A stretch of DNA of 41,113 nt, from the NCBI RefSeq assembly GCF_000003605.2, contig NW_003144930.1, positions 1 to 41,113 on the forward strand, given 5' to 3'. Both the position numbers and the translations under genes were made by a program. Shown here in pieces: positions 132-39,584 of the stretch. Positions within the stretch are counted from its first letter, which is position 1. Every line of letters begins with the position of its first letter. The notes below the pieces were generated by a model. That model was not told the DNA's origin, searched no databases, and saw only the letters and a program-made list of their open reading frames with translations. The stretch comes from Saccoglossus kowalevskii (lineage: Eukaryota; Hemichordata; Enteropneusta; Harrimaniidae).

Positions 132-2975
132 GTTAACGCACAGCGCAAAGTTGTTCAAAGTGAGTGCAAAGTTGTGCAAAGTCATTGAAAAGTCAATAGA
201 TGTATTTGTATATATGTCCCATGTTGTTGGCATATAGAAACGCGCAGTGTAAGTCGACAAATTTAATAAAAGCCAGTTGAAAGCAGTCAATAAATGTTCA
301 CATGAGCTGATTGTAAAATGGCAGAAAACAGCGTCCAAAGTTGTAAAAAACGAAGGAAATGTTGGCGGAGTTGCTTGTATATTTAACCTCATTCATTATC
401 ATGACAACCCCGCAGTGAAATTTCGAAAATATTAAGTAAATGTTGCGTGAATGCCTCATATATAAGCAGATTATCACAACAGTCAAGCGGAAAATCGACA
501 ACAAACTGGTTACAAAGTTGTGAAAAGCGTTTGCAAAGTTGGTAGTTTCATTCGCGATTGTTACCTGTTATATCATAATAACATGTCCCATAGTTAAAAG
601 TTCGAAAATGTGAATACATATTTCGTACATTGGTGTTAAATTACCGTAGTGTTACTCCAAGTATGTAGAGGTTATAGGTCAATCCTAGAATGTATTTGTG
701 CAAGCAATATCGATTTTAAGACATCCAAAAACATGAAATAGTCGCCAATTCGGTTTAATTTCAAATAAGTCTTGCAGCTGAGTGGTTGGGTAACTGACAT
801 ATGTATTAAGTAAAGCACGATCGGGTGTGGTTAGTACTTGCATGGGAGACTCCCTGAATACACGAGCTGTTGCATTTACTTTTTTTTTTCATCACACACA
901 TGGAAATGATATAATATAAGGCAACGTTACTGCCTTTTTCCTTACTATGATGTCAATCATTTATAGTTGAAAATCGTGGCATTTTTGTAAGTTTTTTTAT
1001 TTATTGGAATGTTTTAAAATTCCTTCCAAATTTCGAGAACAAGCTGTTGATGCTGTCGGCACGTAGTGGGTTGTAAGATGTTAACGCACAGCGCAAAGTT
1101 GTTCAAAGTGAGTGCAAAGTTGTGCAAATTCATTGAAAAGACAATAGATGTATTTGTATATATGTCCCATGTGGCTGGCATATAGAAACGCGCAGTGTAA
1201 CGTCGACAAATTTAATAAAAGCCAGTTGAAAGCAGTCAATAAATGTTCACATGAGCTGACTGTAAAATGGCAGAAAACAGCGTCCAAAGTTGTAAAAAAC
1301 GAAGGAAATGTTGGCGGAGTTGCTTGTATATTTAACCTAAGTCATTATCATGACAACCCCGCAGTGAAATTTCGAAAATATTAAGTAAATGTTGCGTGAA
1401 TGCCTCATATATAAGCAGATTATCACAACAGTCAAGCGGAAAATCGACAACAAACTGGTTACAAAGTTGTGAAAAGCGTTTGCAAAGTTGGTAGTTTCAT
1501 TCGCGATTGTTACCTGTTATATCATAATAACATGTCCCATAGTTAAAAGTTTGAAAATGTGAATACATATTTCGTACATTGATGTTAAATTACCGTAGTG
1601 TTACTCCAAGTATGTAGAGGTTATAGGTCAATCCTAGAATGTATTTGTGCAAGCAATATCGATTTTAAGACATCCAAAAACATGAAATAGTCGCCAATTC
1701 GGTTTAATTTCAAATAAGTCTTGCAGCTGAGTGGTTGGGTAACTGACATATGTATTAAGTAAAGCACGATCGGGTGTGGTTAGTACTTGCATGGGAGACT
1801 CCCTGAATACATGAGCTGTTGCATTTACTTTTTTTTTTCATCACACACATGGAAATGATATAATATAAGGCAACGTTACTGCCTTTTTCCTTACTATGAT
1901 GTCAATCATTTATAGTTGAAAATCGTGGCATTTTTGTAAGTTTTTTTATTTATTGGAATGTTTTAAAATTCCTTCCAAATTTCGAGAACAAGCTGTTGAT
2001 GCTGTCGGCACGTAGTGGGTTGTAAGATGTTAACGCACAGCGCAAAGTTGTTCAAAGTGAGTGCAAAGTTGTGCAAAGTCATTGAAAAGTCAATAGATAT
2101 ATTTGTATATATGTCCCATGTTGTTGGCATATAGAAACGCGCAGTGTAACGTCGACAAATTTAATAAAAGCCAGTTGAAAGCAGTCAATAAATGTTCACA
2201 TGAGCTGACTGTAAAATGGCAGAAAACAGCGTCCAAAGTTGTAAAAAACGAAGGAAATGTTGGCGGAGTTGCTTGTATATTTAACCTAAGTCATTATCAT
2301 GACAACCCCGCAGTGAAATTTCGAAAATATTAAGTAAATGTTGCGTGAATGCCTCATATATAAGCAGATTATCACAACAGTCAAGCGGAAAATCGACAAC
2401 AAACTGGTTACAAAGTTGTGAAAAGCGTTTGCAAAGTTGGTAGTTTCATTCGCGATTGTTACCTGTTATATCATAATAACATGTCCCATAGTTAAAAGTT
2501 CGAAAATGTGAATACATATTTCGTACATTGATGTTAAATTACCGTAGTGTTACTCCAAGTATGTAGAGGTTATAGGTCAATCCTAGAATGTATTTGTGCA
2601 AGCAATATCGATTTTAAGACATCCAAAAACATGAAATAGTCGCCAATTCGGTTTAATTTCAAATAAGTCTTGCAGCTGAGTGGTTGGGTGACTGACATAT
2701 GTATTAAGTAAAGCACGATTGGGTGTGGTTAGAACTTGCTTGGGAGACCCCCTGAATACACGAGCTGTTGCATTTACTTTTTTTTTCATCACACACATGG
2801 AAATGATATAATATAAGGCAACGTTACTGCCTTTTTCCTTACTATGATGTCAATCATTTATAGTTGAAAATCGTGGCATTTTTGAAGTTTTTTTATTTAT
2901 TGGAATGTTTTAAAATTCCTTCCAAATTTCGAGAACAAGCTGTTGATGCTGTCGGCACGTAGTGTGTTGTAAGAT
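132..2975 (+). repeat. Satellite units 1-3: left-end subfamily
   Basis: Three consecutive units share variants absent or rare elsewhere: GCGTCCAAAG instead of GCGTGCAAAG, GCAGTGAAATTT instead of GCAGTTAAATTT, CTGTTATATCAT instead of CTGTGATATCAT, GAATACATATTT instead of GAATAAATATTT, GTATTAAGTAAAG instead of GTTTTAAGTAAAG, and CGTTACTGCC instead of CGTTCCTGCC. Unit 2 has a private CATGTGGCTGGC. Unit 1 lacks the C of TAACGTCGAC. Spacing here is 948-949 bases, slightly above the array mean. The pattern says this end exchanges little with the rest of the array. Confidence 0.93.
813..871 (+). repeat. 5S rRNA-derived segment (first of 42, one per monomer)
   Basis: The segment resembles the 3' half of eukaryotic 5S rRNA, where AAGC, TCGGGCCTGGTTAGTACTTG, then G, ATGGGAGACC, CCTGGGAATAC and GTGCTGT follow in order. 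Here the order is AAGC, ATCGGG, TGGTTAGTACTTG, C, ATGGGAGACT, CCCTGAATAC and GAGCTGTT. This covers the region of the 5S internal control region's intermediate element and box C. The 5S 5' half is not found upstream. Segments start at 813, 1762, 2711, 3665, 4606, 5550, 6498, 7441, 8382, 9323, 10267, 11211, 12156, 13101, 14046, 14992, 15938, 16880, 17822, 18767, 19709, 20654, 21590, 22534, 23469, 24413, 25357, 26301, 27244, 28188, 29133, 30078, 31019, 31963, 32907, 33849, 34794, 35737, 36684, 37630, 38574 and 39518. Similarity was judged by eye against the well-known 5S consensus. Confidence 0.85.
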
Positions 2976-3926
2976 GTTAACGCACAGCGCAAAGTTGTTC
3001 AAAGTGAGTGCAAAGTTGTGCAAAGTCATTGAAAAGTCAATAGATGTATTTGTATATATGTCCCATGTTGTTGGCATATAGAAACGCGCAGTGTAAGTCG
3101 ACAAATTTAATAAAAGCCAGTTGAAAGCAGTCAATAAATGTTCACATGAGCTGATTGTAAAATGGCAGAAAACAGCGTCCAAAGTTGTAAAAAACGAGGG
3201 AAATGTTGGCGGAGTTGCTTGTATATTAAACCGAAGTCATTATCATGACAACCCCGCAGTTAAATTTCGAAAATATTAAGTAAATGTTGCGTGAATGCCT
3301 CATATATAAGCAGATTATCACAACAGTCAATTGAAAAATCGACAACAAACTGGTTACAAAGTAGTGTAAAGCGATTGCAAAGTTGGTAGTTTCATTCGGG
3401 ATTGTTACCTGTGATATCATAATAACATGTCCCATAGTTAAAAGTTCGAAAATGTGAATAAATATTTCGTACATTGATGTTAAATTACCGTAGTGTTACT
3501 CCAAGTATGTAGAGGTCATATGTCAATCCAAGAAGGTATTTGTGCAAGCAATATCGATTTTAAGACATCCAAAAACATGAAATAGTCGCCAATTCGGTTT
3601 AATTTCAAATAAGTCATTAAGTCTTGCAGCTGAGTGGTTGGGTGACTGACATATGTTTTAAGTAAAGCACGATCGGGCGTGGTTAGTACTTGCATGGGAG
3701 ACTCCCTGAATACACGAGCTGTTGAATTTACTTTGTTTTTTTCATCACACACATGGAAATGATATAAGGCAACGTTCCTTCCTTTTTCCTTACTGTGATG
3801 TCAATCATTTATAGTTGAAAATCGTGGCATTTTTGTAAGTTTTTTATTTAATGGAATGTTTTAAAATTCCTTCCAAATTTCGAGAACAAGCTGTTGATGC
3901 TGTCGGCACGTAGTGGGTTGTAAGAT
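2976..3926 (+). repeat. Satellite unit 4: hybrid between the left subfamily and the main array
   Basis: The first part has the left-subfamily states (CATGTTGTTGG near 3063, GCGTCCAAAG near 3175, and the same missing C as unit 1 near 3097). From about 3258 on it has main-array states (GCAGTTAAATTT, CTGTGATATCAT, GAATAAATATTT, GTTTTAAGTAAAG). The switch lies between about 3181 and 3258. An 8-base insertion near 3613-3620 makes an imperfect direct repeat (AAGTCATTAAGTC), found in no other unit, and accounts for most of the extra length (951). Confidence 0.88.
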
Positions 3927-6900
3927 ATTAACGCACAGCGCAAAGTTGTTCAAGTGAGTGCAAAGTTGTGCAAACTCATTGAAAAGTCTATAGATGTATT
4001 TGTATATATGTCCCAAGTTGTTGGCATATAGAAACGCGCAGTGTAACGTCGACAATTTAATAAAAGCCAGTTGAAAGCAGTCAATAAATGTCACATGAGC
4101 TGACTGTAAAATTGCAGAAAACAGCGTGCAAAGTTGTAAAAAACGAAGGAAATTTTGGCGGAGTTGCTTGTATATTTAACCTAAGTCATTATCATAACAA
4201 CCCCGCAGTTAAATTTCGAAAATATTAAGTAAATATTGCGTGAATGCCTAATATATAAGCAGATTATCACAACAGTCAAGCGTAAAATCGACAACAAACT
4301 GGTTACAAAGTTGTGAAAAGCGATTGCAAAGTTGGTAGTTTCATTCGGGATTGTTACCTGTGATATCATAATACCATGTCCCATAGTTAAAAGTTCGAAA
4401 ATGTGAATAAATATTTCGTACATTGATGTTAAATTGCCGTAGTGTTACTCCAAGTATGTAGAGGTCATAGGTCAATCCTAGAAGGTATTTGTGCAAGCAA
4501 TATCGATTTTAAGACATCCAAAAACATGAAATAGTCGCAAATTCGGTTTAATTTCAAATACGTCTTGCAGCTGAGTGGTTGGGTGACTGACATATGTTTT
4601 AAGTAAAGCTCGATCGGACGTGGTTAGTACTTGCATGGGTGACTCCCTGAATACACGAGCTGTTGAATTTACTTTTTGTTTTTCATCACACACATGGAAA
4701 TGATATAAGGCAACGTTCCTGTCTTTTTCCTTACTGTGATGTCAATCATTTATAGTTGAAAATCGTGGCATTTTTGTAAGTTTTTTTATTTAATGGAATG
4801 TTTTAAAATTCCTTCCAAATTTCGAGAACAAGCTGTTGATGCTGTCGGCACGTAGTGGGTTGTAAAATGTTAACGCACAGCGCAAAGTTGTTCAAAGTGG
4901 GTGCAAAGTTGTGCAAAGTCATTGAAAAGTCTATCGATGTATTTGTATGTATGTCCCAAGTAGTTGGCATATAGAAACGCGCAGTGTAACGTCGACAAAT
5001 TTAATAAAAGCCAGTTGAAAGCAGTCAATAAATGTTCACATGAGCTGACTGTAAAATTGCAGAAAACAGCGTGCAAAGTGGTAAAAAACGAAGAAAATGT
5101 TGGTGGAGTTGCTTGTATATTTACCCTATGTCATTTTCATGACAAACCCGCAGTTAAATTTCGAAAATATTAAGTAAATGTTGCGTGAATGCCTCATATA
5201 TCAGCAGATTATCACAACAGTCAAGCGACAAATCGACAACAACTGGTTACAAAGTTGTGAAAAGCGATTGCAAAGTTGGTAGTTTCATTCGGGATTGTTA
5301 CCTGTGATATCAGAGTAACGTTTTCCATAGTTAAAAGTTCGAAAATGTGAATAAATATTTCGTACATTGATGTTAAATTACCGTAGTGTTACTCCAAGTA
5401 TGTAGAGGCCATAGGTCAATCCTAGAATGTATTTGTGCAAGCAATATCGATTTTAAGACATCCAAAAACATGAAATAGTCGCCAATTCGGTTTAATTTCA
5501 AATAAGTCTTGCAGCTGAGTGGTTAGGTGACTGACATATGTTTAACGTAAAGCACGATCGGGCGTGGTTAGTACTTGCATAGGAGACTCCCTGAAAAAAA
5601 CGAGCTGTTGAATTTACTTTTTTTTGTTTCATCACACACATGGAAATGATATAAGACAACGTTCCTGCCTCTTTGCTTACTGTGATGTCAATCATTTATA
5701 GTGGAAAATCGTGGCATTTTTGTAAGTTTTTTTATTTAATGGAATGTTTTAAAATTCCTTCTAAATTTCGAGAACAAGCTGTTGATGCTGTCGGCACGTA
5801 GTGGGTTGTAAGATGCTAACGCACAGCGCAAAGTTGTTTAAAGTGAGTGCAAAGTTGTGCAAAGTCATTGAAAAGTCTATAGATGTATTTGTATATATGT
5901 CCCAAGTTGTTGGCATATAGAAACGCGCTGTGTAACGTCGACAAATTTAATAAAAGCCAGTTGAAAGCAGTCAAGAAATGTTCACATGAGCTGACTGTAA
6001 AATGGTGGAAAACTGCGTGCAAAGTTGTAAAAAACGAAAGGAAATGTTGGCGGAGTTGCTTGTATATTTAACCTAAGTCATTATCATGACAACCCCGCAG
6101 TTAAATTTCGAAAATATTAAGTAAATGTTGCGTGAATGCCTCATATATAAGCAGATTATCACAGCAGTCAAGCGGAAAATCGACAACAAACTGGTTACAA
6201 AGTTGTGAAAAGCGTTTGCAAAGTTGGTAGTTTCATTCGGGATTGTTACCTGTGATATCATAATAACATGTCCCATAGTTAAAAGTTCGAAAATGTGAAT
6301 AAATATTTTGTACATTGATGTTAAATTACCGTAGTATTACTCCAAGTATGTAGAGGTCATAGGTCAATGCTAGAAGGTATTTGTGCAAGCAATATCGATT
6401 TTAAGACATCCAAAAACATGAAATAGTCGCCAATTCGGTTTAATTTCAAATAAGTCTTGCAGCTGAGTGGTTGGGTGACTGACAAATGTTTTAAGTAATG
6501 CACGATCGGGTGTGGTTAGTACTTGCATGGGAGACTCCCTGAATACACGAGCTGTTGCATTTACTTTTTTTTTCATCACACACATGGAAATGATATTAAG
6601 CAACGTTCCTGCCTTTTTCCTTGCAGTGATGTCAATCATTTATAGTTGAAAATCGTGGCATTTTTGTAAGTTGTTTTATTTAATGGAATGTTTTAAAATT
6701 CCTTCTAAATTTCGAGAACAAGCTGTTGATGCTGTCGGCACGTAGTGGGTTGTAAGATGTTAACGCACAGCGCAAAGTTGTTCAAAGTGAGTGCAAAGTT
6801 GTGCAAAGTCATTGAAAAGTCTATAGATGTATTTGTATATATGTCCCAAGTTGTTGGCATATAGAAACGCGCAGTTAAACGTCGACAAATTTAATAAAAG

Positions 6901-7702
6901 CCAGTTGAAAGCAGTCAATAAATGTTCACATGAGCTGACTGTAAAATGGCAGAAAACAGCGTGCAAAGTTGTAAAAAACGAAGGAAATGTTGGCGAAGTT
7001 GCTTGTATATTTAACCTAAGTCATTATCATGACAACCCCGCAGTTAAATTTCGAAAATATTAAGTAAATGTTGCGTGAATGCCTCATATATAAGCAGATT
7101 ATCACAACATTCAAGCGAAAAATCGACAACAAACTGGTTACAAAGTTGTGAAAAGCGATTGCAAAGTTGGTAGTTTCATTCGGGATTGTTAACTGTGATA
7201 TCATAATAACATGTCCCATAGTTAAAAGTTCGAAAATGTGAATAAATATTTCGTACATTGATGTTAAATTACCGTAGTGTTACTCCAAGTATGTAGAGGT
7301 CATAGGTCAATCCTAGAATGTATTTGTGCAAGCACTATCGATTTTAAGACATCCAAAAACATGAAATAGTCGCCAATTCGGTTTAATTTCAAATAAGTCT
7401 TGCAGCAGAGTCGTTGGGTGACTGACAAATGTTTTAAGTAAAGCACGATCGGGCGTGGTTAGTACTTGCATGGGAGACTCCCTGAATACACGAGCTGTTG
7501 CATTTACTTTGTTTTTTCATCACACACATGGAAATGATATAATGCAACGTTCCTGCCTTTTTCCTTACTGTGATGTCAATCATTTATAGTTCAAAATCGT
7601 GGCATTTTTGTAAGTTTTTTTTGTTTAATGGAATGTTTTAAAATTCCTTCCAAATTTCGAAACAAGCTGTTGATGCTGTCGGCACGTAGTGGGTTGTAAG
7701 AT
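3927..7702 (+). repeat. Satellite units 5-8
   Basis: These are main-array units with several private lesions. Unit 5 has single-base losses in the CAAAG block and near the GTCGAC site, and reads AAAGCTCGATCGGACG in its 5S-derived part. Unit 6 has a rare variant block at about 5074-5142 (GAAGAAAATGTTGGTGG, CCCTATGTCATTTTC), shared with unit 36, and ends with the CCTCTTTGC and TAGTGGAAAATC states also seen at the ends of units 21 and 31. Unit 7 reads AATGGTGGAAAACTGCG and carries a one-base insertion near 6030. Unit 8 has GCAGTTAAACGTC. Confidence 0.92.
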
Positions 7703-8640
7703 GTTAACGCACAGCGCAAAGTTGCTCAAAGTGAGTGCAAGTTGTGTAAAGTCATTGAAAAGTCTATAGATGTATTTGTACATATGTCCCAAGTTGTTGC
7801 CATATAGAACCGCGCAGTGTAAAGTCGACAAATTTAATAAAAGCCAGTTGAAAGCATTCAATAAATGTTCACATGAGCTGACTGTAAAATTGCAGAAAAC
7901 AGCGTGCAAAGTTGTAAAACACGAAGGAAATGTTGGCGGAGTTGCTTGTATATTTAACCTAAGTCATTATCATGACAACCCCGCAGTTAAATTTCGAAAA
8001 TATTAAGTAAATGTTGCGTGAATGCCTCATATATAAGCAGATTATCACAACAGTCAAGTGAAAAATCGACAACAAACTGGTTACATAGTTGTGTAAAGCG
8101 ATTGCAAAGTTGGTAGTTTCATTCGGGATTGTTACCTGTGATATCATAATAACATGTCCCATAGTTAAAAGTTCGAAAATGTGAATAAATATTTCGTACA
8201 TTGATGTTAAATTACCGTAGTGTTACTCCAAGTATGTAGAGGTCATAGGTCAATCCTAGAAGGTATTTGTGCAAGCAATATCGATTTTAAGACATCCAAA
8301 ACATGAAATAGTCGTCAATTCGGTTTAATTTCAATAAGTCTTGCAGCTGAGTGGTTGGGTGACTGACAAATGTTTTAAGTAAAGCACGATCGGGCGTTGT
8401 TAGTACTTGCATGGGAGACTCCCTGAATACACGAGCTGTTGAATTTACTTTTTTTTCATCACACACATGGAAATGATATAAGGCAACGTCCTGCCTTTTT
8501 CCTTACTGTGATGTCAATCATTTATAGTTGAAAATCGTGGCATTTTCGTAAGTTTTTTTATTTAATGGAATGTTTTAAAATTCCTTCCAAATTTCGAGAC
8601 CAAGCTGTTGATGCTGTCGGCACGTAGTGGGTTGTAAGAT
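7703..8640 (+). repeat. Satellite unit 9, near-twin of unit 34
   Basis: This unit shares with unit 34 (31281) a set of rare states: GTTGTTGCCATATAGAACCG, AAAGCATTCAATAAATG, GTAAAACACGAAGG and TGGTTACATAGTTGTG. Its second half (GTCGTCAATTCGG near 8313, GGGCGTTGTTAG near 8392) instead matches the second half of unit 35. Its start carries the GTTGCTCAAAG, GTGTAAAG and GTACATATG states of the CT subfamily. It is shorter than average (938) because of several one-base losses. Confidence 0.9.
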
Positions 8641-10528
8641 GTTAACGCACAGCGCAAAGTTGTTTAAAGTGAGTGCAAAGTTGTGTAAAGTCATTGAAAA
8701 GTCTATAGATGTATTTGTATATATGTCCCAAGTTGTTGGCATATAGAAACGCGCAGTGTAACGTCGACAAATTTAATAAAAGCTAGTTGAAAGCAGTCAA
8801 TAAATGTTCACATGAGCTGACTGTAAAATGGCAGAAAACAGCGTGCAAAGTTGTAAAAAACGAAGGAAATGTTGGCGGAGTTGCTTGTATAATTAACCTA
8901 AGTCATTATCATGACAACCCCGCAGTTAAATTTCGAAAATATTAAGTACATGTTGCGTGAATGCCTCATATATAAGCAGATTATCACAACAGTCAAGCGA
9001 AAAATCGACAACAAACTGGTTACAAAGTTGTGAAAAGCGATTGCAAAGTTGGTAGTTTCATTCGGGATTGTTAACTGTGATAGCATAATAACATGTCCCA
9101 TAGTTAAAAGTTCGAAAATGTGAATAAATATTTCGTACATTGATGTTAAATTACCGTAGTGTTACTCCAAGTATGTAGAGGTCATAGGTCAATCCTAGAA
9201 TGTATTTGTGCAAGCAATATCGATTTTAAGACATCCAAAAACATGAAATAGTCGCCAATTCGGTTTAATTTCAAATAAGCCTTGCAGCTGAGTGGTTGGG
9301 TGACTGACAAATATTTTAAGTAAAGCACGATCGGGCGTGGTTAGTACTTGCATGGGAGACTCCCTGAATACACGAGCTGTTGCATTTACTTTGTTTTTTC
9401 ATCACACACATGGAAATGATATAAGGCAACGTTCCTGCCTTTTTCCTTACTGTGATGTCAATCATTTATAGTTGAAAATCGTGGCATTTTTGTAAGTTTT
9501 TTTATTTAATGGAATGTTTTAAAATTCCTTCCAAATTTCGAGAACAAGCTGTTGATGCTGTCGGCACGTAGTGGGTTGTAAGATGTTAACGCACAGCGCA
9601 AAGTTGTTTAAAGTGAGTGCAAAGTTGTGTAAAGTCATTGAAAAGTCTATAGATGTATTTGTATATATGTCCCAAGTTGTTGGCATATAGAAACGCGCAG
9701 TGTAACGTCGACAAATTTAATAAAAGCTAGTTGAAAGCAGTCAATAAATGTTCACATGAGCTGACTGTAAAATGGCAGAAAACAGCGTGCAAAGTAGTAA
9801 AAAACGAAGAAAATGTTGGCGGAGTTGCTTGTATAATTAACCTAAGTCATTATCATGACAACCCCGCAGTTAAATTTCGAAAATATTAAGTACATGTTGC
9901 GTGAATGCCTCATATATAAGCAGATTATCACAACAGTCAAGCGAAAAATCGACAACAAACTGGTTACAAAGTTGTGAAAAGCGAATGCAAAGTTGGTAGT
10001 TTCATTCGGGATTGTTAACGGTGATAGCATAATAACATGTCCCATAGTTAAAAGTTCGAAAATGTGAATAAATATTTCGTACATTGATGTTAAATTACCG
10101 TAGTGTTACTCCAAGTATGTAGAGGTCATAGGTCAATCCTAGAAGGTATTTGTGCAAGCAATATCGATTTTAAGACATCCAAAAACATGAAATAGTTGCC
10201 AATTCGGTTTAATTTCAAATAAGTCTTGCAGCTGAGTGGTTGGGTGACTGACAAATATTTTAAGTAAAGCACGATCGGGCGTGGTTAGTACTTGCATGGG
10301 AGACTCCCTGAATACACGAGCTGTTGCATTTACTTTGTTTTTTCATCACACACATGGAAATGATATAATGCAACGTTCCTGCCTTTTTCCTTACTGTGAT
10401 GTCAATCATTTATAGTTGAAAATCGTGGCATTTTCGTAAGTTTTTTTATTTAATGGAATGTTTTAAAATTCCTTCCAAATTTCGAAAACAAGCTGTTGAT
10501 GATGTCGGCACGTAGTGGGTTGTAAGAT
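8641..10528 (+). repeat. Satellite units 10-11: adjacent duplicated pair
   Basis: The two neighbouring units share private states: GTTGTTTAAAGTG, AAAGCTAGTTGAAAG, TATAATTAACC in place of TATATTTAACC, AAGTACATGTTGCG, and GATAGCATAATAAC in place of the GATATC form. They are exactly 944 bases apart, which fits a recent one-unit tandem duplication. Confidence 0.92.
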
Positions 10529-26561: not shown

Positions 26562-29396
26562 GTTAACGCACAGCGCAAAGTTGATCAAAGTGAGTGCAAA
26601 GTTGTGCAAAGTCATTGAAAAGTCTATAGATCTATTTGTATATATGTCCCAAGTTGTTGGCATATAGAAACGCGCAGTGTAACGTCGACAAATTTAATAA
26701 AAGCCAGTTGAAAACAGTCAATAAATGTTCACATGAGCTGACTGTAAAATGGCAGAAAACAGCGTGCAAAGTTGTAAAAAACGAAGGAAATGTTGGCGGA
26801 GTTGCTTGTATATTTTTCCTAAGTCATTATCATGACAACCCCGCAGTTAAATTTCGAACATATTAAGTAAATGTTGCGTGAATGCCTCATATATAAGCAG
26901 ATTATCACAACAGTCAAGCGAAAAATCGACAACAAACTGGTTACAAAGTTGTGAAAAGCAATTGCAAAGTTGGTAGTTTCATTCGGGATTGTTAACTGTG
27001 ATATCATAATAACATGTCCCATAGTTAAAAGTTCGAAAATGTGAATAAATATTTCGTACATTGATGTTAAATTACCGTAGTGTTACTCCAAGTATGTAGA
27101 GGTCATAGGTCAATCCTAGAAAGTATTTGTGCAAGCGATATCGATTTTAAGACATCCAAAAACATGAAATTGTCGCCAATTCGGTTTAATTTCAAATAAG
27201 TCTTGCAGCTGAGTGGTTAGGTGACTGACATATGTTTTAAGTAAAGCACGATCGGGCGTGGTTAGTACTTGCATGGGAGACTCCCTGAATACACGAGCTG
27301 TTGAATTTACTTTTTTTTTCATCACAAACATGGAAATGATATAAGGCAACGTTCCTGCCTTTTTCCTTACTGTGATGTCAATCATTTATAGTTGAAAATC
27401 GAGGCGTTTTTGTAAGTTTTTTTATTTAATGGAATGTTTTAAAATTCCTTCTAAATTTCGAGAACAAGCTGTTGATGCTGTCGGCTCGTAGTTGGTTGTA
27501 AGATGTTAACGAACAGCGCAAAGTTGTTCAAAGTGAGTGCAAAGTTGTGCAAAGTCATTGAAAAGTCTATAGATGTATTTGTATATATGTCCCAAGTTGT
27601 TGGCATATAGAAACGCGCAGTGTAACGTCGACAAATTTAATAAAAGCTAGTTGAAAGCAGTCAATAAATGTTCACATGAGCTGACTGTAAAATTGCAGAA
27701 AACAGCGTGCAAAGTTGTAAAAAACGAAGGAAATGTTGGCGGAGTTGCTTGTATATTTAACCTAAGTCATTATCATGACAACCCCGCAGTTAAATATCGA
27801 AAATATTAAGTAAATGTTGCGTGAATGCCTCATATATAAGCAGATTATCACAACAGTCAAGCGAAAAATCGACAACAAACTGGTTACAAAGTTGTGAAAA
27901 GCGATTGCAAAGTTGGTAGTTTCATTCGGGATTGTTATCTGTGATATCATAATAACATGTCCCATAGTTAAATGTTCGAAAATGTGAATAAATATTTCGT
28001 ACATTGATGTCAAATTACCGTAGTGTTACTCCAAGTATGTAGAGGTCATAGGTCAATGCTAGAAGGTGTTTGTGCAAGCAATATCGATTTTAAGACATCC
28101 AAAAACATGAAATATTCGCTAATTCGATTTTAATTTCAAATAAGTCTTGCAGCTGAGTGGTTGGGTGACGGACATATGTTTTAAGTAAAGCACGATCGGG
28201 CGTGGTTAGTACTTGCATGGGAGACTCCCTGAATACACGATCTGTTGAATTTACTTTTTGTTGTTCCATCACACACATGGAAATGATATAAGGCAACGTT
28301 CCTGCCTTTTTCCTTACTGTGATGTCAATCATTTATAGTTGAACATCGTGGCATTTTTGTAAGTTTTTTTATTTAATGGAATGTTTTAAAATTCCTTCCA
28401 AATTTCGAGAACAAGTTGTTGATGCTATCGGCACGTAGTGGCTTGAAAGATGTTAACGCACTGCGCAAAGTTGTTCAAAGTGAGTGCAAAGTTGTGCAAA
28501 GTCATTGAAAAGTCTATAGATGTATTTGTATATATGTCCCAAGTTGTTGGCATATAGAAACGCGCAGTGTAACGTCGACAAATTTAATAAAAGCCAGTTG
28601 AAAGCAGTCAATAAATGTTCACATGAGCTGACTGTAAAATTGCAGAAAACAGCGTGCAAAGTTGTAAAAAACGAAGGAAATGTTGGCGGAGTTGCTTGTA
28701 TATTTACCCTAAGTCATTATCATGACAACCCCGCAGTTAAATTTCGAAAATATTAAGTAAATGTTGCGTGAATGCCTCATATATCAGCAGATTATCACAA
28801 CAGTCAGCGAAAAATCGACAACAAACTGGTTACAAAGTTGTGAAAAGCGATTGCAAAGTTGGTAGTTTCATTCGGGATTGTTACCTGTGATATCATAATA
28901 ACATGTCCCATAGTTAAAAGTTCGAAAATGTGAATAAATATTTCGTACATTGATGTTAAATTACCGTAATGTTACTCCAAGTATGTAGAGGTCATAGTTC
29001 AATCCTAGAAGGTATTTGTGCAAGCAATATCGAATTTAAGACATCCAAAAACAAGAAATAGTCGCCAATTCGGTTCAATTTCATATACGTCTTGCAGCTG
29101 AGTGGTTGGGTGACTGACATATGTTTTAAGTAAAGCACGATCGGGCGTGGTTAGTACATGCATGGGAGACTACCTCAATAAACGAGCTGTTGAATTTACT
29201 TTTTTTTGTTCCATCACACACATGGAAATGATATAAGGCAACGTTCCTGCCTCTTTGCTTACTGCGATGTCAATAATTTATAGTGGAAAATCGTGGCATT
29301 TTTGTAAGTTTTTTTATTTAATGGAATGTTTTAAAATTCCTTCCAAATTTCGAGAACAAGCTGTTGATGCTGTCGGCACGTAGTGGGTTTTAAGAT
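26562..29396 (+). repeat. Satellite units 29-31
   Basis: Unit 29 has GTTGATCAAAG, ATAGATCTATTTG, TATATTTTTCCTAAG and CGAACATATTAAG, all shared with unit 32 three units later. Unit 30 has CGAGGCGTTTTTG, TCGGCTCGTAGTTGG and AAAGCTAGTTG. Unit 31 begins with TGGCTTGAAAGATG as in unit 16 and ends with TTTTTGTTCCATC, CCTCTTTGC and TAGTGGAAAATC. Confidence 0.9.
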
Positions 29397-31280
29397 GTTA
29401 ACGCACAGCGCAAAGTTGATCAAAGTGAGTGCAAAGTTGTGCAATGTCATTGAAAAGTCTATAGATCTATTTGTATATATGTCCCAAGTTGTTGGCATAT
29501 AGAAACGCGCAGTGTAACGTCGACAAATTTAATAAAAGCCAGTTGAAAGCAGTCAATAAATGTTCACATGAGCTGACTGTAAAATGGCAGAAAACGCGTG
29601 CAAAGTTGTAAAAAACGAAGGATATGTTGGCGGAGTTGCTTGTATATTTTTCCTAAGTCATTTTCATGACAACCCCGCAGTTAAATTTCGAACATATTAA
29701 GTAAATGTTGCGTGAATGCCTCATATATAAGCAGATTATCACAACAGTCAAGCGAAAAATCGACAACAAACTGGTTACAAAGTTGTGAAAAGCGATTGCA
29801 AAGTTGGTAGTTTCATTCGGGATTGTTAACTGTGATATCATAATAACATGTCCCATAGTTAAAAGTTCGATAATGTGAATAAATATTTCGTACATTGATG
29901 TTAAATTACCGTAGTGTTACTCCAAGTATGTGGAGGTCATAGGTCAATCCTAGAAGGTATTTGTGCAAGCAATATCGATTTTAAGACATCCTAAAACATG
30001 AAATAGTCGGCAATTTGGTTTAATTTCAAATAAGTCTTGCAGCTGAGTGGTTGGGTGACTGACATATGTTTTAAGTAAAGCACGATCGGGCGTGGTTAGT
30101 ACTTGCATGGGAGACTCCCTGAATACACGAGCTGTTGAATTTACTTTTTTTTTCATCACACACATGGAAATGATATTAGGCAACGTTCCTGCCTTTTTCC
30201 TTACTGTGATGTCAATCATTTATAGTTGAAAATCGTGGCATTTTTGTAAGTTTTTTTATTTAATGGAATGTTTTAAAATTCCTTCCAAATTTCGAGAACA
30301 AGCTGTTGATGCTGTCGGCACGTAGTGGCTTGTAAGATGTTAACGCACAGCGCAAAGTTGTTCAAAGTGGGTACAAAGTTGTGCAAAATCATTGAAAAGT
30401 CTATAGATGTATTTGTATATATGTCCCAAGTTGTTGGCATATAGAAACGCACAGTGTAACGTCGACAAATTTAATAAAAGCCAGTTGAAAGCAGTCAATA
30501 AATGTTCACATGAGCTGACTGTAAAACTGCAGAAAACAGCGTGCAAAGTTGTAAAAAACGAAGGAAATGTTGGCGGAGTTGCTTGTATATTTAACCAAAG
30601 TCATTATCTTGACAACCCCGCAGTTAAATTTCGAAAATATTAAGTAAATGTTGCGTGAATGCCTCATATATAAGCAGATTATCACAACAGTCAAGCGAAA
30701 AATCGACAACAAACTGGTTACAAAGTTGTGAAAAGCGATTGCAAAGTTGGTAGTTTTATTCGGGATTGTTAACTGTGATATCATAATAACATGTCCCATA
30801 GTTAAAATTCGAAAATGTGAATAAATATTCGTACATTGATGTTATATTACCGTAGTGTTACTCCAAGTATGTAGAGGTCATAGGTCAATCCTAGAAGGTA
30901 TTTGTGCAAGCAATATCGATTTTAAGACATCCAAAAACATGAAATAGTCGCCAATTCGGTTTAATTTCAAATAAGTCTTGCAGCTGAGTGGTTGGGTGAC
31001 TGACAAATGTTTTAAGTAAAGCACGATCAGGCGTGGTTAGTACTTGCATGGGAGACTCCCTGAATACACGAGCTGTTGCATTTACTTTGTGTTTTCATCA
31101 CACACATGGAAATGATATAATGCAACGTTCCTGCCTTTTTCCTTACTGTGATGTCAATCATTTATAGTTGAAAATCGTGGCATTTTCGTAAGTTTTTTTA
31201 TTTAATGGAATGTTTTAAAATTCCTTCCAAATTTCGAAAACAAGCTGTTGATGCTGTCGGCACGTAGTGGGTTGTAAGAT
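29397..31280 (+). repeat. Satellite units 32-33
   Basis: Unit 32 is the twin of unit 29 (see above) but has a one-base loss in GAAAACGCGTGC and reads GTGGGTTTTAAGATG before its landmark. Unit 33 has GTGGGTACAAAG, AAAACTGCAG, TTAACCAAAG and TTATCTTGAC, with several one-base losses in its distal half (TAAAATTCG, AAATATTCGTAC). Confidence 0.9.
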
Positions 31281-33166
31281 GTTAACGCACAGCGCAAAGT
31301 TGCTCAAAGTGAGTGCAAAGTTGTGTAAAGTCATTGAAAAGTCTATAGATGTATTTGTACATATGTCCCAAGTTGTTGCCATATAGAACCGCGCAGTGTA
31401 AAGTCGACAAATTTAATAAAAGCCAGTTGAAAGCATTCAATAAATGTTCACATGAGCTGACTGTAAAATTGCAGAAAACAGCGTGCAAAGTTGTAAAACA
31501 CGAAGGAAATGTTGGCGGAGTTGCTTGTATATTTAACCTAAGTCATTATCATGACAACCCCGCAGTTAAATTTCGAAAATATTAAGTAAATGTTGCGTGA
31601 ATGCCTCATATATAAGCAGATTATCACAACAGTCAAGTGAAAAATCGACAACAAACTGGTTACATAGTTGTGTAAAGCGATTGCAAAGTTGGTAGTTTCA
31701 TTCGGGATTGTTACCTGTGATATCATAATAACATGTCCCATAGTTAAAAGTTCGAAAATGTGAATAAATATTTCGTACATTGATGTTAAATTACCGTAGT
31801 GTTACTCCAAGTATGTAGAGGTCATAGGTCAATCCTAGAAGGTATTTGTGCAAGCAATATCGATTATAAGACATCCAAAAACATGAAATAGTCGCCAATT
31901 CGGTTTAATTTCAAATAAGTCTTGCAGCTGAGTGGTTGGGTGACTGACATATGTTTTAAGTAAAGCACGATCGGGCGTGGTTAGTACTTGCATGGGAGAC
32001 TCCCTGAATTCACGAGCTGTTGAATTTACATTTTTTTTTCATCACACACATGGAAATGATATAAGGCAACGTTCCTGCCTTTTTCCTTACTGTGATGTCA
32101 ATCATTTATAGTTGAAAATCGTGGCATTTTTGTAAGTTTTTTTATTTAATGGAATGTTTTAAAATTCCTTCCAAATTTCGAGAACAAGCTGTTGTTGCTG
32201 TCGGCATGTAGTGGGTTGTAAGATGTTAACGCATAGCGCAAAGTTGTTCAAAGTGAGTGCAAAGTTGTGCAAAGTCATTGAAAAGTCTATAGATGTATTT
32301 GTATATATGTCCCAAGTTGTTGGCATATAGAAACGCGCAGTGTAACGTCGACAAATTTAATAAAAGCCAGTTGAAAGCAGTCAATAAATGTTCACATGAG
32401 CTGACTGTAAAATTGCAGAAAACAGCGTGCAAAGTTGTAAAACTCGAAGGAAATGTTGGCGGAGTTGCTTGTATATTTAACCTAAGTCATTATCATGACA
32501 ACCCCGCAGTTAAATTTCGAAAATATTAAGTAAATGTTGCGTGAATGCCTCATATATAAGCAGATTATCACAACAGTCAAGTGAAAAATCGACAACAAAC
32601 TGGTTACATAGTTGTGTAAAGCGATTGCAAAGTTGGTAGTTTCATTCGGGATTGTTACCTGTGATATCATAATAACATGTCCCATAGTTAAAAGTTCGAG
32701 AATGTGAATAAATATTTCGTACATTGATGTTAAATTACCGTAGTGTTACTCCAAGTATGTAGAGGTCATAGGTCAATCCTAGAAGGTATTTGTGCAAGCA
32801 ATATCGATTTTAAGACATCCAAAAACATGAAATAGTCGTCAATTCGGTTTAATTTCAAATAAGTCTTGCAGCTGAGTGGTTGGGTGACTGACATATGTTT
32901 TAAGTAAAGAACGATCGGGCGTTGTTAGTACTTGCATGGGAGACTCCCTGATACACGAGCTGTTGAATTTACTTTTTGTTTTTCATCACACACATGGAAA
33001 TGATATAAGGCAACGTTCTGCCTTTTCCTTACTGTGATGTCAATCATTTATAGTTGAAAATCGTGGCATTTTTGTCAGTTTTTTTATTTAATGGAATGTT
33101 TTAAAATTCCTTCCAAATTTCGAGAACAAGCTGTTGATGCTGTCGGCACGTAGTGGGTTGTAAGAT
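31281..33166 (+). repeat. Satellite units 34-35
   Basis: Unit 34 is the twin of unit 9 (CCATATAGAACCG, AAAGCATTC, AAACACGAAGG). Units 34 and 35 both carry GGTTACATAGTTGTGTAAAG. Unit 35 has AAAACTCGAAGG, and its 5S-derived segment begins AAAGAACGATCGGGCGTTG, a substitution in the otherwise constant AAGCACG. Confidence 0.91.
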
Positions 33167-35054
33167 GTTAACGCACAGCGCAAAGTTGTTCAAAGTGAGT
33201 GCAAAGTTGTGAAAACTCATTGAAAAGTCTATAGATGTATTTGTATATATGTCCCAAGTTGTTGGCATATAGAAACGCGCAGTGTAACGTCGACAAATTT
33301 AATAAAAGCCAGTTGAAAGCAGTCAATAAATGTTCACATGAGCTGACTGTAAAATTGCAGAAAACAGCGTGCAAAGTGGTAAAAAACGAAGAAAATGTTG
33401 GTGGAGTTGCTTGTATATTTACCCTATGTCATTTTCATGACAACCCCGCAGTTAAATTTCGAAAATATTAAGTAAATGTTGCGTGAATGCCTCATATATC
33501 AGCAGATTATCACAACAGTCAAGCGAAAAATCGACAACAAACTGGTTACAAAGTTGTGAAAAGCGATTGCAAAGTTGGTAGTTTCATTCGGGATTGTTAC
33601 CTGTGATATCATACTAACGTTTCCCATAGTTAAAAGTTTGAAAATGTGAATAAATATTTCGTACAATGATGTTAAATTACCATAGTGTTACCCCCAGTAT
33701 GTAGAGGACATAGGTCAATCCTAGAAGCTATTTGTGCAAGCAATATCGATTTTAAGACATCCAAAAACATGAAATAGTCGCCAATTCGGTTTAATTTCAA
33801 ATAAGTCTTGCAGCTGAATGGTTGGGTGTCTGACATATATTTTAAGTAAAGCACGATTGGGCGTGGTTAGTACTTGCATGGGAGACTCCCTGAATACACG
33901 AGCTGTTGAATTTACTTTTTTTGTTCCATCACACACATGGAAATGATATAAGGCAACGTTCCTGCCTTTTTCCTTACTGTGATGTCAATCATTTATAGTT
34001 GAAAATCGTGGCATTTTTGTCAGTTTTTTTATTTAATGGAATGTTTTAAAATTCCTTCCAAATTTCGAGAACAAGCTGTTGATGCTGTCGGCACGTAGTG
34101 GGTTGTAAGATGTTAACGCACAGCGCAAAGTTGTTCAAAGTGAGTGCAAAGTTGTGAAAACTCATTGAAAAGTCTATAGATGTATTTGTATATATGTCCC
34201 AAGTTGTTGGCATATAGAAACGCGCAGTGTAACGTCGACAAATTTAATAAAAGCCAGTTGAAAGCAGTCAATAAATGTTCACATGAGCTGACTGTAAAAT
34301 TGCAGAAAACAGCGTGCAAAGTTGTAAAAAACGAAGGAAATGTTGGCGGAGTTGCTTGTATATTTAACCTAAGTAATTATTATGACAACCTCGCAGTTAA
34401 ATTTCGAAAATATTAAGTAAATGTTGCGTGAATGCCTCATATATAAGCAGATTATCACAACAGTCAAGCGAAAAATCGACAACAAACTGGTTACAAAGTT
34501 GTGAAAAGCGATTGCAAAGTTGGTAGTTTCATTCGGGATTGTTACCTGTGATATCATAATAACATGTCCCATAGTTAAAAGTTCGAAAATGTGAATAAAT
34601 ATTTCGTACATTGATGTTAAATTACCGTAGTGTTACTCCAAGTATGTAGAGGTCATGGGTAAATCCTAGAAGGTATTTGTACAAGCAATATCGATTTCAA
34701 GGCATCCAAAAACCTGAAATAGTCGCCAATTTGGTTAAATTTCCAATAAGTCTTGCAGCTGAGTGGTTGGGTGACTGACATATGTTTTAAGTAAAGCACG
34801 ATCGGGCGTGGTTAGTACTTGCATGGGAGATTCCCTGAATACACGAGCTGTTGAATTTACTTTTTTTTTCATCACACACATGGAAATGATATAAGGCAAC
34901 GTTCCTGCCTTTTTCCTTACTGTGATGTCAATCATTTATAGTTGAAAATCGTGGCATTTTTGAAAGTTTTTTTATTTAATGGAATGTTTTAAAATTCCTT
35001 CCAAATTTCGAGAACAAGCTGTTGATGCTGTCGGCACGTAGTGGGATATAAGAT
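33167..35054 (+). repeat. Satellite units 36-37: adjacent duplicated pair at the start
   Basis: Both units are preceded by TTTTTGTCAGTTTTT and share GTTGTGAAAACTCATTG, 945 bases apart. Unit 36 (about 33376-33440) carries the rare block GAAGAAAATGTTGGTGG and ACCCTATGTCATTTTC of unit 6, so only its proximal part pairs with unit 37. Confidence 0.91.
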
Positions 35055-36946
35055 GTTAACGCACAGCGCAAAGTTGTTCAAAGTGAGTGCAAAGTTGTGC
35101 AAAGTCATTGAAAAGTCTATAGATGTATTTGTATATATGTCCCAAGTTGTTGGCATATAGAAACGCGCAGTTTAACGTCCACAAATTTAATAAAAGCCAG
35201 TTGAAAGCAGTCAATAAATGTTCACATGAGCTGACTGTAAAATGGCAGAAAACAGCGTGCAAAGTTGTAAAAAACGAAGGAAATGTTGGCGAAGTTGCTT
35301 GTATATTTAACCTAAGTCATTATCATGACAACCCCGCAGTTAAATTTCGAAAATATTAAGTAAATGTTGCGTGAATGCCTCATATATAAGCAGATTATCA
35401 CAACAGTCAAGCGAAAAATCGACAACAAACTAGTTACAAAGTTGTGAAAAGCGATTGCAAAGTTGGTAGTTTCATTCGGGATTGTTAACTGTGATATCAT
35501 AATAACATGTCCCATAGTTAAAAGTTCGAAAATGTGAATAAATATTTCGTACATTGATGTTATATTACCGTAGTGTTACTCCAAGTATGTAGAGGTCATA
35601 GGTCAATCCTAGAAGGTATTTGTGCAAGCAATATCGATTTTAAGACATCCAAAAACATGAAATAGTCGCCAATTCGGTTTAATTTCAAATAAGTCTTGCA
35701 GCTGAGTGGTTGGGTGACTGACAAATGCTTTAAGTAAAGCACGATCGGGCGTGGTTAGTACTTGCATGGGAGACTCCCTGAATTCACGAGCTGTTGCATT
35801 TACTTTGTTTTTTCATCACACACATGGAAATGATATAATGCAACGTTCCTGCCTTTTTCCTTACTGTGATGTCAATCATTTATAGTTGAAAATCGGGGCA
35901 TTTTCGTAAGTTTTTTTATTTAATGGAATGTTTTAAAATTCATTCCAAATTTCGAAAACAAGCTGTTGATGCTCTCGGCACGTAGTGGGTTGTAAGATGT
36001 TAACGCACAGCGCAAAGTTGCTCAAAGTGAGTGCAAAGTTGTGTAAAGTCATTGAAAAGTCTATAGATGTATTTTTACATATGTCCCAAGTTGTTGGCAT
36101 ATAGAAACGCGCAGTGTAACGTCGACAAATTTAATAAAATCCAGTTGAAAGCAGTCAATAAATGTTCACATGAGCTGACTGTAAAATGGCAGAAAACAGC
36201 GTGCAAAGTTGCAAAAAACGAAGGAAATGTTGGCGGAGTTGCTTGTATATTTAACCTAAGTCATTATCATGACAACCCCGCAGTTAAATTTCGAAAATAT
36301 TAAGTAAATGTTTCGTGAATGTCTCATATATAAGCAGATTATCACAACAGTCAAGTGAAAAAAAATCGACAACAAACTGGTTACAAAGTTGTGTAAAGCG
36401 ATTGCAAAGTTGGTAGTTTCATTCGGGATTGTTACCTGTGATATCATAGTAACATGTCCCATAGTTAAAAGTTCGAAAATGTGAATAAATATTTCGTAAA
36501 TTGATGTTAAATTGCCGTAGTGTTACTCCAAGTATGTAGAGGTCATAGGTCAATCCTAGAAGGTATTTGTGCAAGCAATATCGATTTTAAGACATCCAAA
36601 AACATGAAATAGTCGCCAATTCGGTTTAATTTCAAATACGTCTTGCAGCTGAGTGGTTTGGTGACTGACATATGTTTTAAGTAAAGCACGATCGGGCGTG
36701 GTTAGTACTTGCATGGATGACTCCCTGAATACACGAGCTGTTGAATTTACTTTTTGTTTTTCATCACACACATGGAAATGATATAAGGCAACGTTCCTGC
36801 CTTTTTCCTTACTGTGATGTCAATCATTTATAGTTGAAAATCGTGGCATTTTTGTAAGTTTTTTTATTTAATGGAATGTTTTAAAATTCCTTCCAAATTT
36901 CGAGAACAAGCTGTTGATGCTGTCGGCACGTAGTGGGTTGTAAGAT
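35055..36946 (+). repeat. Satellite units 38-39
   Basis: Unit 38 follows GTGGGATATAAG (as unit 14) and has AACTAGTTACAAAG (as unit 13) and GTCCACAAATTTAAT. Unit 39 is the twin of unit 17 in its first half (ATGTATTTTTACATATG, AAAATCCAGTTG, GTTGCAAAAAACG, AAATGTTTCGTG). The two successive twins keep the same order as their partners in the left half of the array. Confidence 0.9.
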
Positions 36947-38761
36947 GTTAACACACAGCGCAAAGTTGTTCAAAGTGAGTGCAAAGTTGTGCAAAGTCAT
37001 TGAAAAGTCTATAGATGTATTTGTATATATGTCCCAAGTTGTTGTCATATAGAACCGCGCAGTGTAAAGTCGACAAATTTAATAAAAGCCAGTTGAAAGC
37101 AGTCAATAAATGTTCACATGAGCTGACTGTAAAATTGCAGAAAACAGCGTGCAAAGTTGTAAAAAATCAAACGAAATGTTGGCGGAGTTGCTTGTATATT
37201 TAACCTAAGTCATTATCATAACAACCCCGCAGTTAAATTTCGAAAATATTAAGTAAATATTGCGTGAATGCCTCATATATAAGCAGATTATCACAACAGT
37301 CAAGCGAAAAATCGACAACAAACTGGTTACAAAGTTGTGAAAAGCGATTGCAAAGTTGGTAGTTTCATTCGGGATTGTTACCTGTGATATCATAATAACA
37401 TGTCCCATAGTTAAAAGTTCGAAAATGTGAATAAATATTTCGTACATTGATGTTAAATTACCGTAGTGTTACTCCAAGTATGTAGAGGTCATAGGTCAAT
37501 CCTAGAAGGTATTTGTGCAAGCAATATCGATTTTAAGACATCCAAAAACATGAAATAGTCGCCAATTCGGTTTAATTTCAAATAAGTCTTGCAGCTGAGT
37601 GGTTGGGTGACTGACAAATGTTTTAAGTAAAGCACGATCGGGCGTGGTTAGTACTTGCATGGGAGACTCCCTGAATACACGAGCTGTTGCATTTACTTTC
37701 TTTTTTCATCACACACATGGAAATGATATAATGCAACGTTCCTGCCTTTTTCCTTACTGTGATGTCAATCATTTATAGTTGAAAATCGTGGCATTTTCGT
37801 AAGTTTTTTTATTTAATGGAATGTTTTAAAATTCATTCCAAATTTCGAAAACAAGCTGTTGATGCTGTCGGCACGTAGTGGGTTGTAAGATGTTAACGCA
37901 CAGCGCAAAGTTGCTCAAAGTGAGTGCAAATTTGTGTAAAGTCATTGAAAAGTCTATAGATGTATTTGTACATATGTCCCAAGTTGTTGGCATATAGAAA
38001 CGCGCAGTGCAACGTCGACAAATTTAATAAAAGCCAGTTGAAAGCAGTCAATAAATGTTCACATGAGCTGACTGTAAAATGGCAGAAAACAGCGTGCAAA
38101 GTTGCAAAAAACGAAGGAAATGTTGGCGGAGTTGCTTGTATATTTAACCTAAGTCATTATCATAACAACCCCGCAGTTAAATTTCGAAAATATTAAGTAA
38201 ATATTGCGTGAATGCCTCATATATAAGCAGATTATCACAACAGTCAAGCGAAAAATCGACAACAAACTGGTTACAAAGTTGTGAAAAGCGATTGCAAAGT
38301 TGGTAGTTTCATTCGGGATTGTTACCTGTGATATCATAATAACATGTCCCATAGTTAAAAGTTCGAAAATGTGAATAAATATTTCGTACATTGATGTTAA
38401 ATTACCGTAGTGTTACTCCAAGTATGTAGAGGTCATAGGTCAATCCTAGAAGGTATTTGTGCAAGCAATATCGATTTTAAGACATCCAAAAACATGAAAT
38501 AGTCGCCAATTCGGTTTAATTTCAAATAAGCCTTGCAGCTGAGTGGTTGGGTGACTGACAAATGTTTTAAGTAAAGGACGATCGGGCGTGGTTAGTACTT
38601 GCATGGGAGACTCCCTGAATACACGAGCTGTTGCATTTACTTTGTTTTTTCATCACACACATGAAAATGATATAATGCTACGTTCCTGCATTTTTCCTTA
38701 CTGTGATGTCAATCATTTATAGTTGAAAATCGTGGCATTTTCGTAAGTTTTTTTATTTAAT

Positions 38762-38779
38762 GGAATGTTTTAAAATTCC
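38762..38779 (+). repeat. Imperfect palindrome GGAATGTTTTAAAATTCC (representative)
   Basis: The arms GGAAT and ATTCC are perfect inverted copies around an 8-base AT-rich centre. It occurs about 75 bases before each landmark in almost every unit, with rare changes in the right arm (ATTCA, ATTCG, TTTCT). It is a candidate dimer-protein site or hairpin. Function is unknown. Confidence 0.5.
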
Positions 38780-39163
38780 TTCCAAATTTCGAAAACAAGC
38801 TGTTGATGCTGTCGGCACGTAGTGGGTTGTAAGATGTTAACGCACAGCGCAAAGTTGCTCAAAGTGAGTGCAAAGTTGTGTAAAGTCATTGAAAAGTCTA
38901 TAGATGTATTTGTACATATGTCCCAAGTTGTTGGCATATAGAAACGCGCAGTGTAACGTCGACAAATTTAATAAAAGCCAGTTGAAAGCAGTCAATAAAT
39001 GTTCACATGAGCTGACTGTAAAATGGCAGAAAACAGCGTGCAAAGTTGTAAAAAACGAAGGAAATGTTGGCGGAGTTGCTTGTATATTTAACCTAAGTCA
39101 TTATCATGACAACCCCGCAGTTAAATTTCGAAAATATTAAGTAAATGTTGCGTGAATGTCTCA

Positions 39164-39171
39164 TATATAAG
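39164..39171 (+). promoter_or_regulatory. TATA-box-like TATATAAG within the monomer (representative)
   Basis: TATATAAG occurs at about +328 in nearly all units, in the context CCTCATATATAAGCAGATT. A minority of units (6, 18, 31, 36) have TATATCAG instead. It precedes the 5S-derived segment by about 350 bases. In AT-rich sequence a TATA match is weak evidence on its own. Confidence 0.25.
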
Positions 39172-39479
39172 CAGATTATCACAACAGTCAAGTGAAAATT
39201 CGACAACAAACTGGTTACAAAGTTGTGTAAAGCGATTGCAAAGTTGGTAGTTTCATTCGGGATTGTTACCTGTGATATCATAATAACATGTCCCATAGTT
39301 AAAAGTTCGAAAATGTGAATAAATATTTCGTACATTGATGTTAAATTACCGTAGTGTTACTCCAAGTATGTAGAGGTCATAGGTCAATCCTAGAAGGTAT
39401 TTGTGCAAGCAATATCGATTTTAAGACATCCAAAAACATGAAATAGTCGCCAATTCGGTTTAATTTCAAATAAGTCTTG

Positions 39480-39490
39480 CAGCTGAGTGG
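39480..39490 (+). promoter_or_regulatory. tRNA A-box-like site upstream of the 5S-derived segment (representative)
   Basis: CAGCTGAGTGG fits the Pol III A-box consensus TRGYNNARNGG at every position except the first. It lies about 38 bases before the 5S-like AAGC in nearly all copies, and the GGTTAGTAC of the 5S part sits at a distance usual for an A-box to B-box pair. Whether it acts as a promoter is inference. Conservation here is expected from satellite homogeneity alone. Confidence 0.3.
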
Positions 39491-39517
39491 CTGGGTGACT
39501 GACAAATATTTTAAGTA

Positions 39518-39576
39518 AAGCACGATCGGGCGTGGTTAGTACTTGCATGTGAGACTCCCTGAATACACGAGCTGTT
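39518..39576 (+). repeat. 5S rRNA-derived segment (last of 42)
   Basis: This is the last complete copy before the array ends. It keeps GGTTAGTACTTGCATG but reads GTGAGAC where most copies have GGGAGAC. That substitution is also in the copies at 24413 and 25357, so it marks a branch of the CT subfamily. The main-array form ATCGGGCGTGG is one base closer to canonical 5S (TCGGGCCTGG) than the left-subfamily ATCGGGTGTGG. The lack of the 5' half means it cannot make a functional 5S rRNA. Confidence 0.85.
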
Positions 39577-39584
39577 GCATTTAC

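What the first reader, a model, noticed from the sequence alone, without database searches (positions are those of the whole stretch)
813..39576. Satellite monomers each carry the 3' half of a 5S rRNA gene
All 42 complete monomers contain AAGC, TCGGG, TGGTTAGTACTTG, ATGGGAGAC and GAATAC in the order and spacing of eukaryotic 5S rRNA, plus a T-run at the right place, but no 5S 5' half. The match is too long and too ordered to be chance. 5S-derived satellites are known (5SHindIII in the fish Hoplias, PcP190 in frogs), and 5S-derived SINEs (SINE3) exist. A 944-base monomer with only the 3' half of 5S would be a distinct example.
Basis: partly seen in the sequence, partly recalled or inferred. Interest (0 to 1): 0.82.

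Follow-up and report, generated by a model that had tools for sequence, protein, structure and literature searches.

The report
Satellite DNA built around half 5S
Every copy of this roughly 944-base tandem repeat carries a worn piece of a 5S ribosomal RNA gene, the half that holds the gene's internal promoter; such 5S-derived satellites are already known, and this one belongs to a large family in its genome with no sign yet that the piece still works.

Summary
The window is a ~944-bp satellite array with 42 5S-bearing units. Each has a block matching 5S positions ~49-115: score 61 against human 5S, best of 1,000 shuffles 26. It fits the genome's own 5S-type gene better: 69 against 28. The 5S 5' half is at chance. 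Two details need correcting: all five quoted motifs are exact in only 19 of 42 units, and Rfam 5S gives 13.4 bits, under its threshold of 38.

New here: the 572-Mb genome holds 1,016 exact copies of this satellite's 18-base core; a 728-bp relative; and a separate 216-bp satellite with full-length 5S-like genes, up to 91.7 bits, whose core occurs 1,247 times.

Most likely this is a 5S-gene-derived satellite spread by unequal exchange. Against a working Pol III gene: within the array the block is no less variable than the rest, named helices show no compensatory change, and TTTT precedes box A in 34 of 42 units. SINE3 or Ajax membership is not supported. PcP190, 5SHindIII and hagfish EEEb3 are precedents.

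The parts
1..40084 (+). satellite array, ~944-bp monomers (935-954 bp), cut by the window start on the left and ending inside a monomer near 40084
   Evidence: 41 whole intervals, mean pairwise identity 95.5%
808..870 (+). first of 42 5S-derived blocks (5S positions ~49-115: box A, IE, box C and 3' part)
   Evidence: box names and limits recalled
880..889 (+). T-run after the first 5S block, terminator-like; T4 or longer follows all 42 blocks
17817..17879 (+). a mid-array 5S block; Rfam RF00001 aligns over 17779-17884 at 13.4 bits (below threshold)
39513..39575 (+). last of 42 5S-derived blocks
18088..18508 (+). sub-repeat part of one monomer ('GCAAAGTTG' units); the consensus holds three sub-repeats of 175-183 bp beside a 409-bp 5S-bearing segment
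40463..40808 (+). right flank outside the array: broken THAP-like coding sequence (in-frame stop and frame change); each of three pieces matches Pfam THAP weakly, below its cut-off
   Evidence: 20.9, 15.1 and 13.9 bits against 23.9

Best explanation
It is a satellite DNA whose monomer includes a fossil of a 5S rRNA gene. A 5S-type gene of this genome, or its promoter-bearing 3' half, became part of a tandem unit with three diverged sub-repeats of ~178 bp. That unit was amplified and kept alike by unequal exchange and conversion, giving the 944-bp and 728-bp arrays and scattered old copies. The 5S block is passenger sequence: its 5' half has decayed or been replaced, while box A, IE and box C are still recognisable. 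Shown: the 5S homology, the array, the related arrays, and variation spread over the whole monomer. Inferred: the order of events, the exchange mechanism and the lack of function.
For: 5S match far above shuffles. Genome-wide family: 1,016 exact copies of the 944-type core; the 728-bp array matches much of the monomer at 67-76%; diverged dispersed copies on C6 and C203. The 5S block is not less variable than the rest of the monomer: pi 0.044 against a window median of 0.037, with 80% of windows lower; box A to GAATAC 0.040, with 62.5% lower; 17 singletons against a median of 13. The RNA fold is ordinary (z -0.14), and named 5S-like helices show no change on both sides. TTTT stands before box A in 34 of 42.
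Against: Homogenisation can hide selection inside an array. Among eight family members the 55-base promoter block is nearly the best kept window: 0.82 against 0.63 upstream and 0.60 downstream, rank 2 of 355; but apart from the window the loci had been fetched by exact matches to part of that block. In 57 copies placed by flanks (14 of 22 loci given; the 728-bp loci gave none) the means are block 0.889, upstream 0.864, downstream 0.831. In 39 of these from older arrays the block exceeds the upstream flank in 23 and the mean of both flanks in 35. Of six strongly diverged copies five keep the block better than the mean of their flanks, but these hold the core used for fetching; the one without it does not (0.58 against 0.57 and 0.67). 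The T-run in 42 of 42 is where a terminator would be. Ten helix I bases are 9 of 10 invariant, as at 6.7% of like-spaced places.
Confidence: 0.75

Rival explanations
1. The block is a working type 1 Pol III promoter: it binds TFIIIA and gives a ~115-base RNA, or loads factors on the arrays, and is kept for that.
For: Box A, IE and box C are recognisable, with a T-run after 42 of 42. Nearly the best-kept window among eight family members, and a small excess in flank-placed copies. RNAalifold found one pair of 26 with a change on both sides.
Against: No excess conservation within the array; TTTT before box A in 34 of 42; no compensatory change in named helices; the between-family signal is tied to how copies were found.
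Confidence: 0.12
2. The monomer is a tandem form of a retroelement that carries the 5S promoter, a SINE3 or an Ajax-like TRIM.
For: Ajax keeps only box A, IE and box C, and SINE3 families are best conserved there and diverge upstream. Scattered copies exist.
Against: A T-run right after the block in 42 of 42 should end a Pol III transcript (inference). No primer-binding site better than chance for 23 recalled tRNAs (best 4 of 15 mismatches; 38 of 60 shuffles did as well). The dispersed copies examined on C6 and C203 have satellite sequence around the block. Ajax is 421 or 434 bp.
Confidence: 0.07
3. The 5S match is chance or convergence.
For: Rfam RF00001 is below threshold.
Against: Scores of 61 and 69 against shuffle maxima of 26 and 28; the GGGCGTGG and TTGCATGGG letters are shared with the genome's own 5S-type genes.
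Confidence: 0.01

Closest known systems
PcP190 satellite DNA of frogs
   Same: satellite with a conserved part derived from 5S rDNA, found on other contigs than 5S rDNA (PMC11675491, PMC4877019, abstract and passages)
   Different: ~190-bp unit with a ~120-bp 5S-like part over the transcribed region; here ~944 bp with only the 3' half. The 216-bp satellite of this genome is the closer analogue of PcP190.
EEEb3 of the hagfish Eptatretus burgeri
   Same: tandem repeat containing a partial 5S rDNA (PMC9734144, abstract and passages)
   Different: 379-438 bp, joined to a SINE2 and GTA repeats, tandem form in the germline genome; here three sub-repeats; no SINE search was made
5SHindIII satellite of Hoplias malabaricus
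   Same: 5S-derived centromeric tandem repeat (title seen in a reference list; the name is from the finding and recall)
   Different: length and content not compared here
Ajax TRIM and lepidopteran SINE3
   Same: Ajax keeps only the 5S promoter part (box A, IE, box C); SINE3 is best conserved there and diverges upstream (PMC10886601, sections 17, 19, 29 read)
   Different: mobile elements with LTR, PBS and PPT, or SINE bodies; no PBS found here, and a T-run follows the block

Membership tests
5S rDNA-derived satellite DNA | tandem array of non-genic monomers | tested here: met
5S rDNA-derived satellite DNA | part of the monomer homologous to the 5S gene | tested here: met
   3' half only
5S rDNA-derived satellite DNA | distinct from the host's full-length 5S arrays | tested here: met
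   none of the 36 loci then held had both the 216-bp spacer and the 944 flanks
functional 5S rDNA | full-length 5S gene at Rfam threshold | tested here: not met
   for the window; met by units of the 216-bp family
SINE3 | 5S head at the element's 5' end | tested here: inconclusive
   5S 5' half at chance, but some SINE3 also diverge there and no element ends were defined
SINE3 | no Pol III terminator between 5S head and body (recalled requirement) | tested here: not met
   T4 or longer after 42 of 42
SINE3 | target-site duplications and a LINE-like tail | not tested
   no single-element ends were defined
Ajax / Cassandra (TRIM with Pol III promoter) | primer-binding site after the LTR | tested here: not met
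   23 recalled tRNAs, best 4 of 15 mismatches, as in shuffles
Ajax / Cassandra (TRIM with Pol III promoter) | two LTRs and PPT | not tested
   no separate test made
type 1 Pol III gene | transcription of the block | not testable with these tools
   no RNA data

The most novel reading that the evidence does not exclude
The 5S internal promoter is the selected core of a satellite superfamily: thousands of TFIIIA/Pol III docking sites, spaced every 0.2 to 0.9 kb on arrays with different bodies, that mark or transcribe satellite chromatin after the 5S coding function was lost.
Probability: 0.1. Interest if true: 0.75.

Novelty: new member of a known kind. Interest (0 to 1): 0.42.

Why it matters
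It adds a large satellite family to the known satellites born from 5S genes. It also shows two 5S-derived satellites in one genome, one with the full gene and one with only the promoter-bearing half, plus a series from recent arrays to decayed copies. That series could be used to ask whether a Pol III internal promoter in a satellite is kept by selection or simply decays.

Tried and rejected
tRNA-like 5' half (the upstream part looks like a tRNA A box): p 0.16 on the 944 consensus and p 0.26 on the family consensus, with 23 recalled tRNAs; rejected. A 5S fold with helix I: a matching 5-bp stem arises in 37% of shuffles, and the helix counts show no change on both sides. Higher-order repeats: identity by lag is nearly flat, 0.959 at lag 1 and 0.952-0.957 at lags 2-20. 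Exact core patterns in IMG/VR and GTDB genomes, and one monomer against plasmids: no match. Promoter block conserved between families: treated as inconclusive because of how copies were found (one search replaces 125, which counted C6 twice and one C761 unit twice). A canonical TTGGATGGG 5S core in the genome: 6 places, all 216-family variants; a looser pattern gave 7 places, six in 216-type and one in 728-type units. Two anchored tests of the 5' half began a few bases off box A; one search repeats the test from box A: joint p 0.114 for the whole 5' half, p 0.007 for its last 15 bases, chosen after looking.

Full report
CHECK. The window is a tandem array of ~944-bp monomers: 41 intervals of 935-954 bp, mean pairwise identity 95.5%, range 92.3-99.2%. 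It ends inside a monomer near 40084; beyond lies a broken THAP-like coding sequence, whose three pieces each match Pfam THAP below its cut-off. Forty-two units carry a block that aligns with eukaryotic 5S rRNA from position 49. One thousand dinucleotide-preserving shuffles gave a maximum of 26, and reversed human 5S scored 17. Four other recalled, unchecked 5S sequences scored 53 (mollusc-like), 44 (fly), 34 (worm) and 31 (plant), each above every shuffle. Identity to human 5S 49-114 averages 81% over 42 copies. The 5S 5' half is at chance in all five comparisons. If the whole gene had diverged evenly by 19%, a 5' half as unlike as this would appear in 0.15% of 2,000 simulations; at 25% divergence in 1.1%, at 30% in 6%.

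CORRECTIONS. The five motifs are together exact in 19 of 42 units, singly in 32 to 39. Infernal is not significant by itself: no window hit at Rfam thresholds; one unit gives RF00001 13.4 bits against 38. The case rests on the nucleotide alignments and on the genome's own 5S-type gene, not on the covariance model.

THE GENOME. The window is contig C3593 of an unnamed 572-Mb assembly in 4,830 contigs. The 23-base core TGGTTAGTACTTGNATGGGAGAC occurs 3,418 times and its reversed control 0 times. At least three kinds of array carry it: 944 bp (C324, C389, the window, diverged units on C124); 728 bp (C115), matching much of the 944 monomer at 67-76%; and 216 bp (C111, C242, C404). Eighteen-base cores of the 944 and 216 types occur 1,016 and 1,247 times exactly. 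The 216-bp unit has a full-length 5S-like gene: of seven loci searched (43.5 kb), the three that are 216-bp arrays gave 77 matches at the Rfam threshold, the best 91.7 bits with no broken pair shown; the four 944- or 728-type loci gave none. Its 162 units differ by pi 0.100 in the gene and 0.130 in the spacer, so these fetched arrays look like a satellite more than a uniform rDNA array. A canonical TTGGATGGG core is almost absent: 6 places, all 216-family variants; a looser pattern found 7 places, six 216-type and one 728-type. The 216-type gene is thus the nearest thing to a host 5S found here; whether it is the working 5S is not known. The Rfam search of the whole genome did not complete.

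ORIGIN. The 944 block fits the 216-type gene better than human 5S: score 69 against a shuffle maximum of 28, 5S positions 50-115, sharing the GGGCGTGG and TTGCATGGG letters. Outside it BLAST found no similarity between the two consensus units at E 0.01, and none of the 36 loci held had both kinds of flank. The monomer is composite: three sub-repeats of 175-183 bp, 63-71% alike (z 5.5 to 15.2 against shuffles), and a 409-bp segment with the 5S block. The 5' half stays at chance against the 216 gene (p 0.46 and 0.57; joint p 0.114 for 12 family members). In those 12 members the 15 bases before box A match more than expected (79 of 180, p 0.007), but I chose that stretch after seeing it. An eroded 5' half is possible, not shown.

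FUNCTION. For a live Pol III unit: box A, IE and box C (names and limits recalled) are recognisable, and T4 or longer follows 42 of 42 blocks. Against: within the array the block varies as much as the rest (pi 0.044 against a median of 0.037; 17 singletons against a median of 13); TTTT lies just before box A in 34 of 42; the fold is ordinary (z -0.14); the named helices show no change on both sides, and RNAalifold found one such pair of 26. Among eight family members the block ranks second of 355 windows (0.82 against ~0.6), but apart from the window the loci were fetched through an exact match to part of it. A repeat with copies placed by flanks only, and double counts removed, gave 57 copies from 14 of 22 loci: block 0.889, upstream 0.864, downstream 0.831, 5' half 0.760. 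In the 39 from older arrays the block exceeds the upstream flank in 23 and the mean of both flanks in 35. These copies still lie in loci fetched for the core, and array neighbours are not independent. Of six strongly diverged copies, the only one without the core shows no excess (0.58 against 0.57 and 0.67). I therefore take the block as a decaying fossil and keep the promoter reading as a minority view.

KNOWN RELATIVES. 5S-derived satellites are established: PcP190 (abstract and passages), the Hoplias satellite and a Plantago B-chromosome satellite (titles in a reference list), and hagfish EEEb3 with a partial 5S (abstract and passages). Ajax TRIMs keep only the promoter part, and SINE3 families diverge upstream of it (PMC10886601, sections 17, 19 and 29 read), a striking parallel, but a primer-binding site is missing here and a T-run follows the block.

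VERDICT. A real, well-supported 5S-derived satellite of a known kind, with a useful genomic context and no clear evidence yet of function.

Noticed in passing
L009, L011, L015 (contigs C111, C242, C404): A separate 216-bp satellite carrying a full-length 5S-like gene (up to 91.7 Rfam bits), with some units at 118-bp spacing that leave out the spacer; units about 85-87% alike in C111 and C242.
   Followed up: partly
window 40463-40808: Broken THAP-like coding sequence beside the array, with an in-frame stop and a frame change; pieces below the Pfam cut-off.
   Followed up: partly
L010 (contig C115): A 728-bp satellite homologous to much of the 944-bp monomer, with the same 5S block.
   Followed up: partly
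L012 (contig C6): Two old, diverged 5S units 503 bp apart with satellite flanks; their box A starts AAGTTAAGCT like the 216-type gene, unlike the 944 array.
   Followed up: partly
window, ~39 bases before each box A: The stretch in place of the 5S 5' half is the fastest-changing part among flank-placed copies (0.76 against 0.83-0.89); cause unknown.
   Followed up: partly
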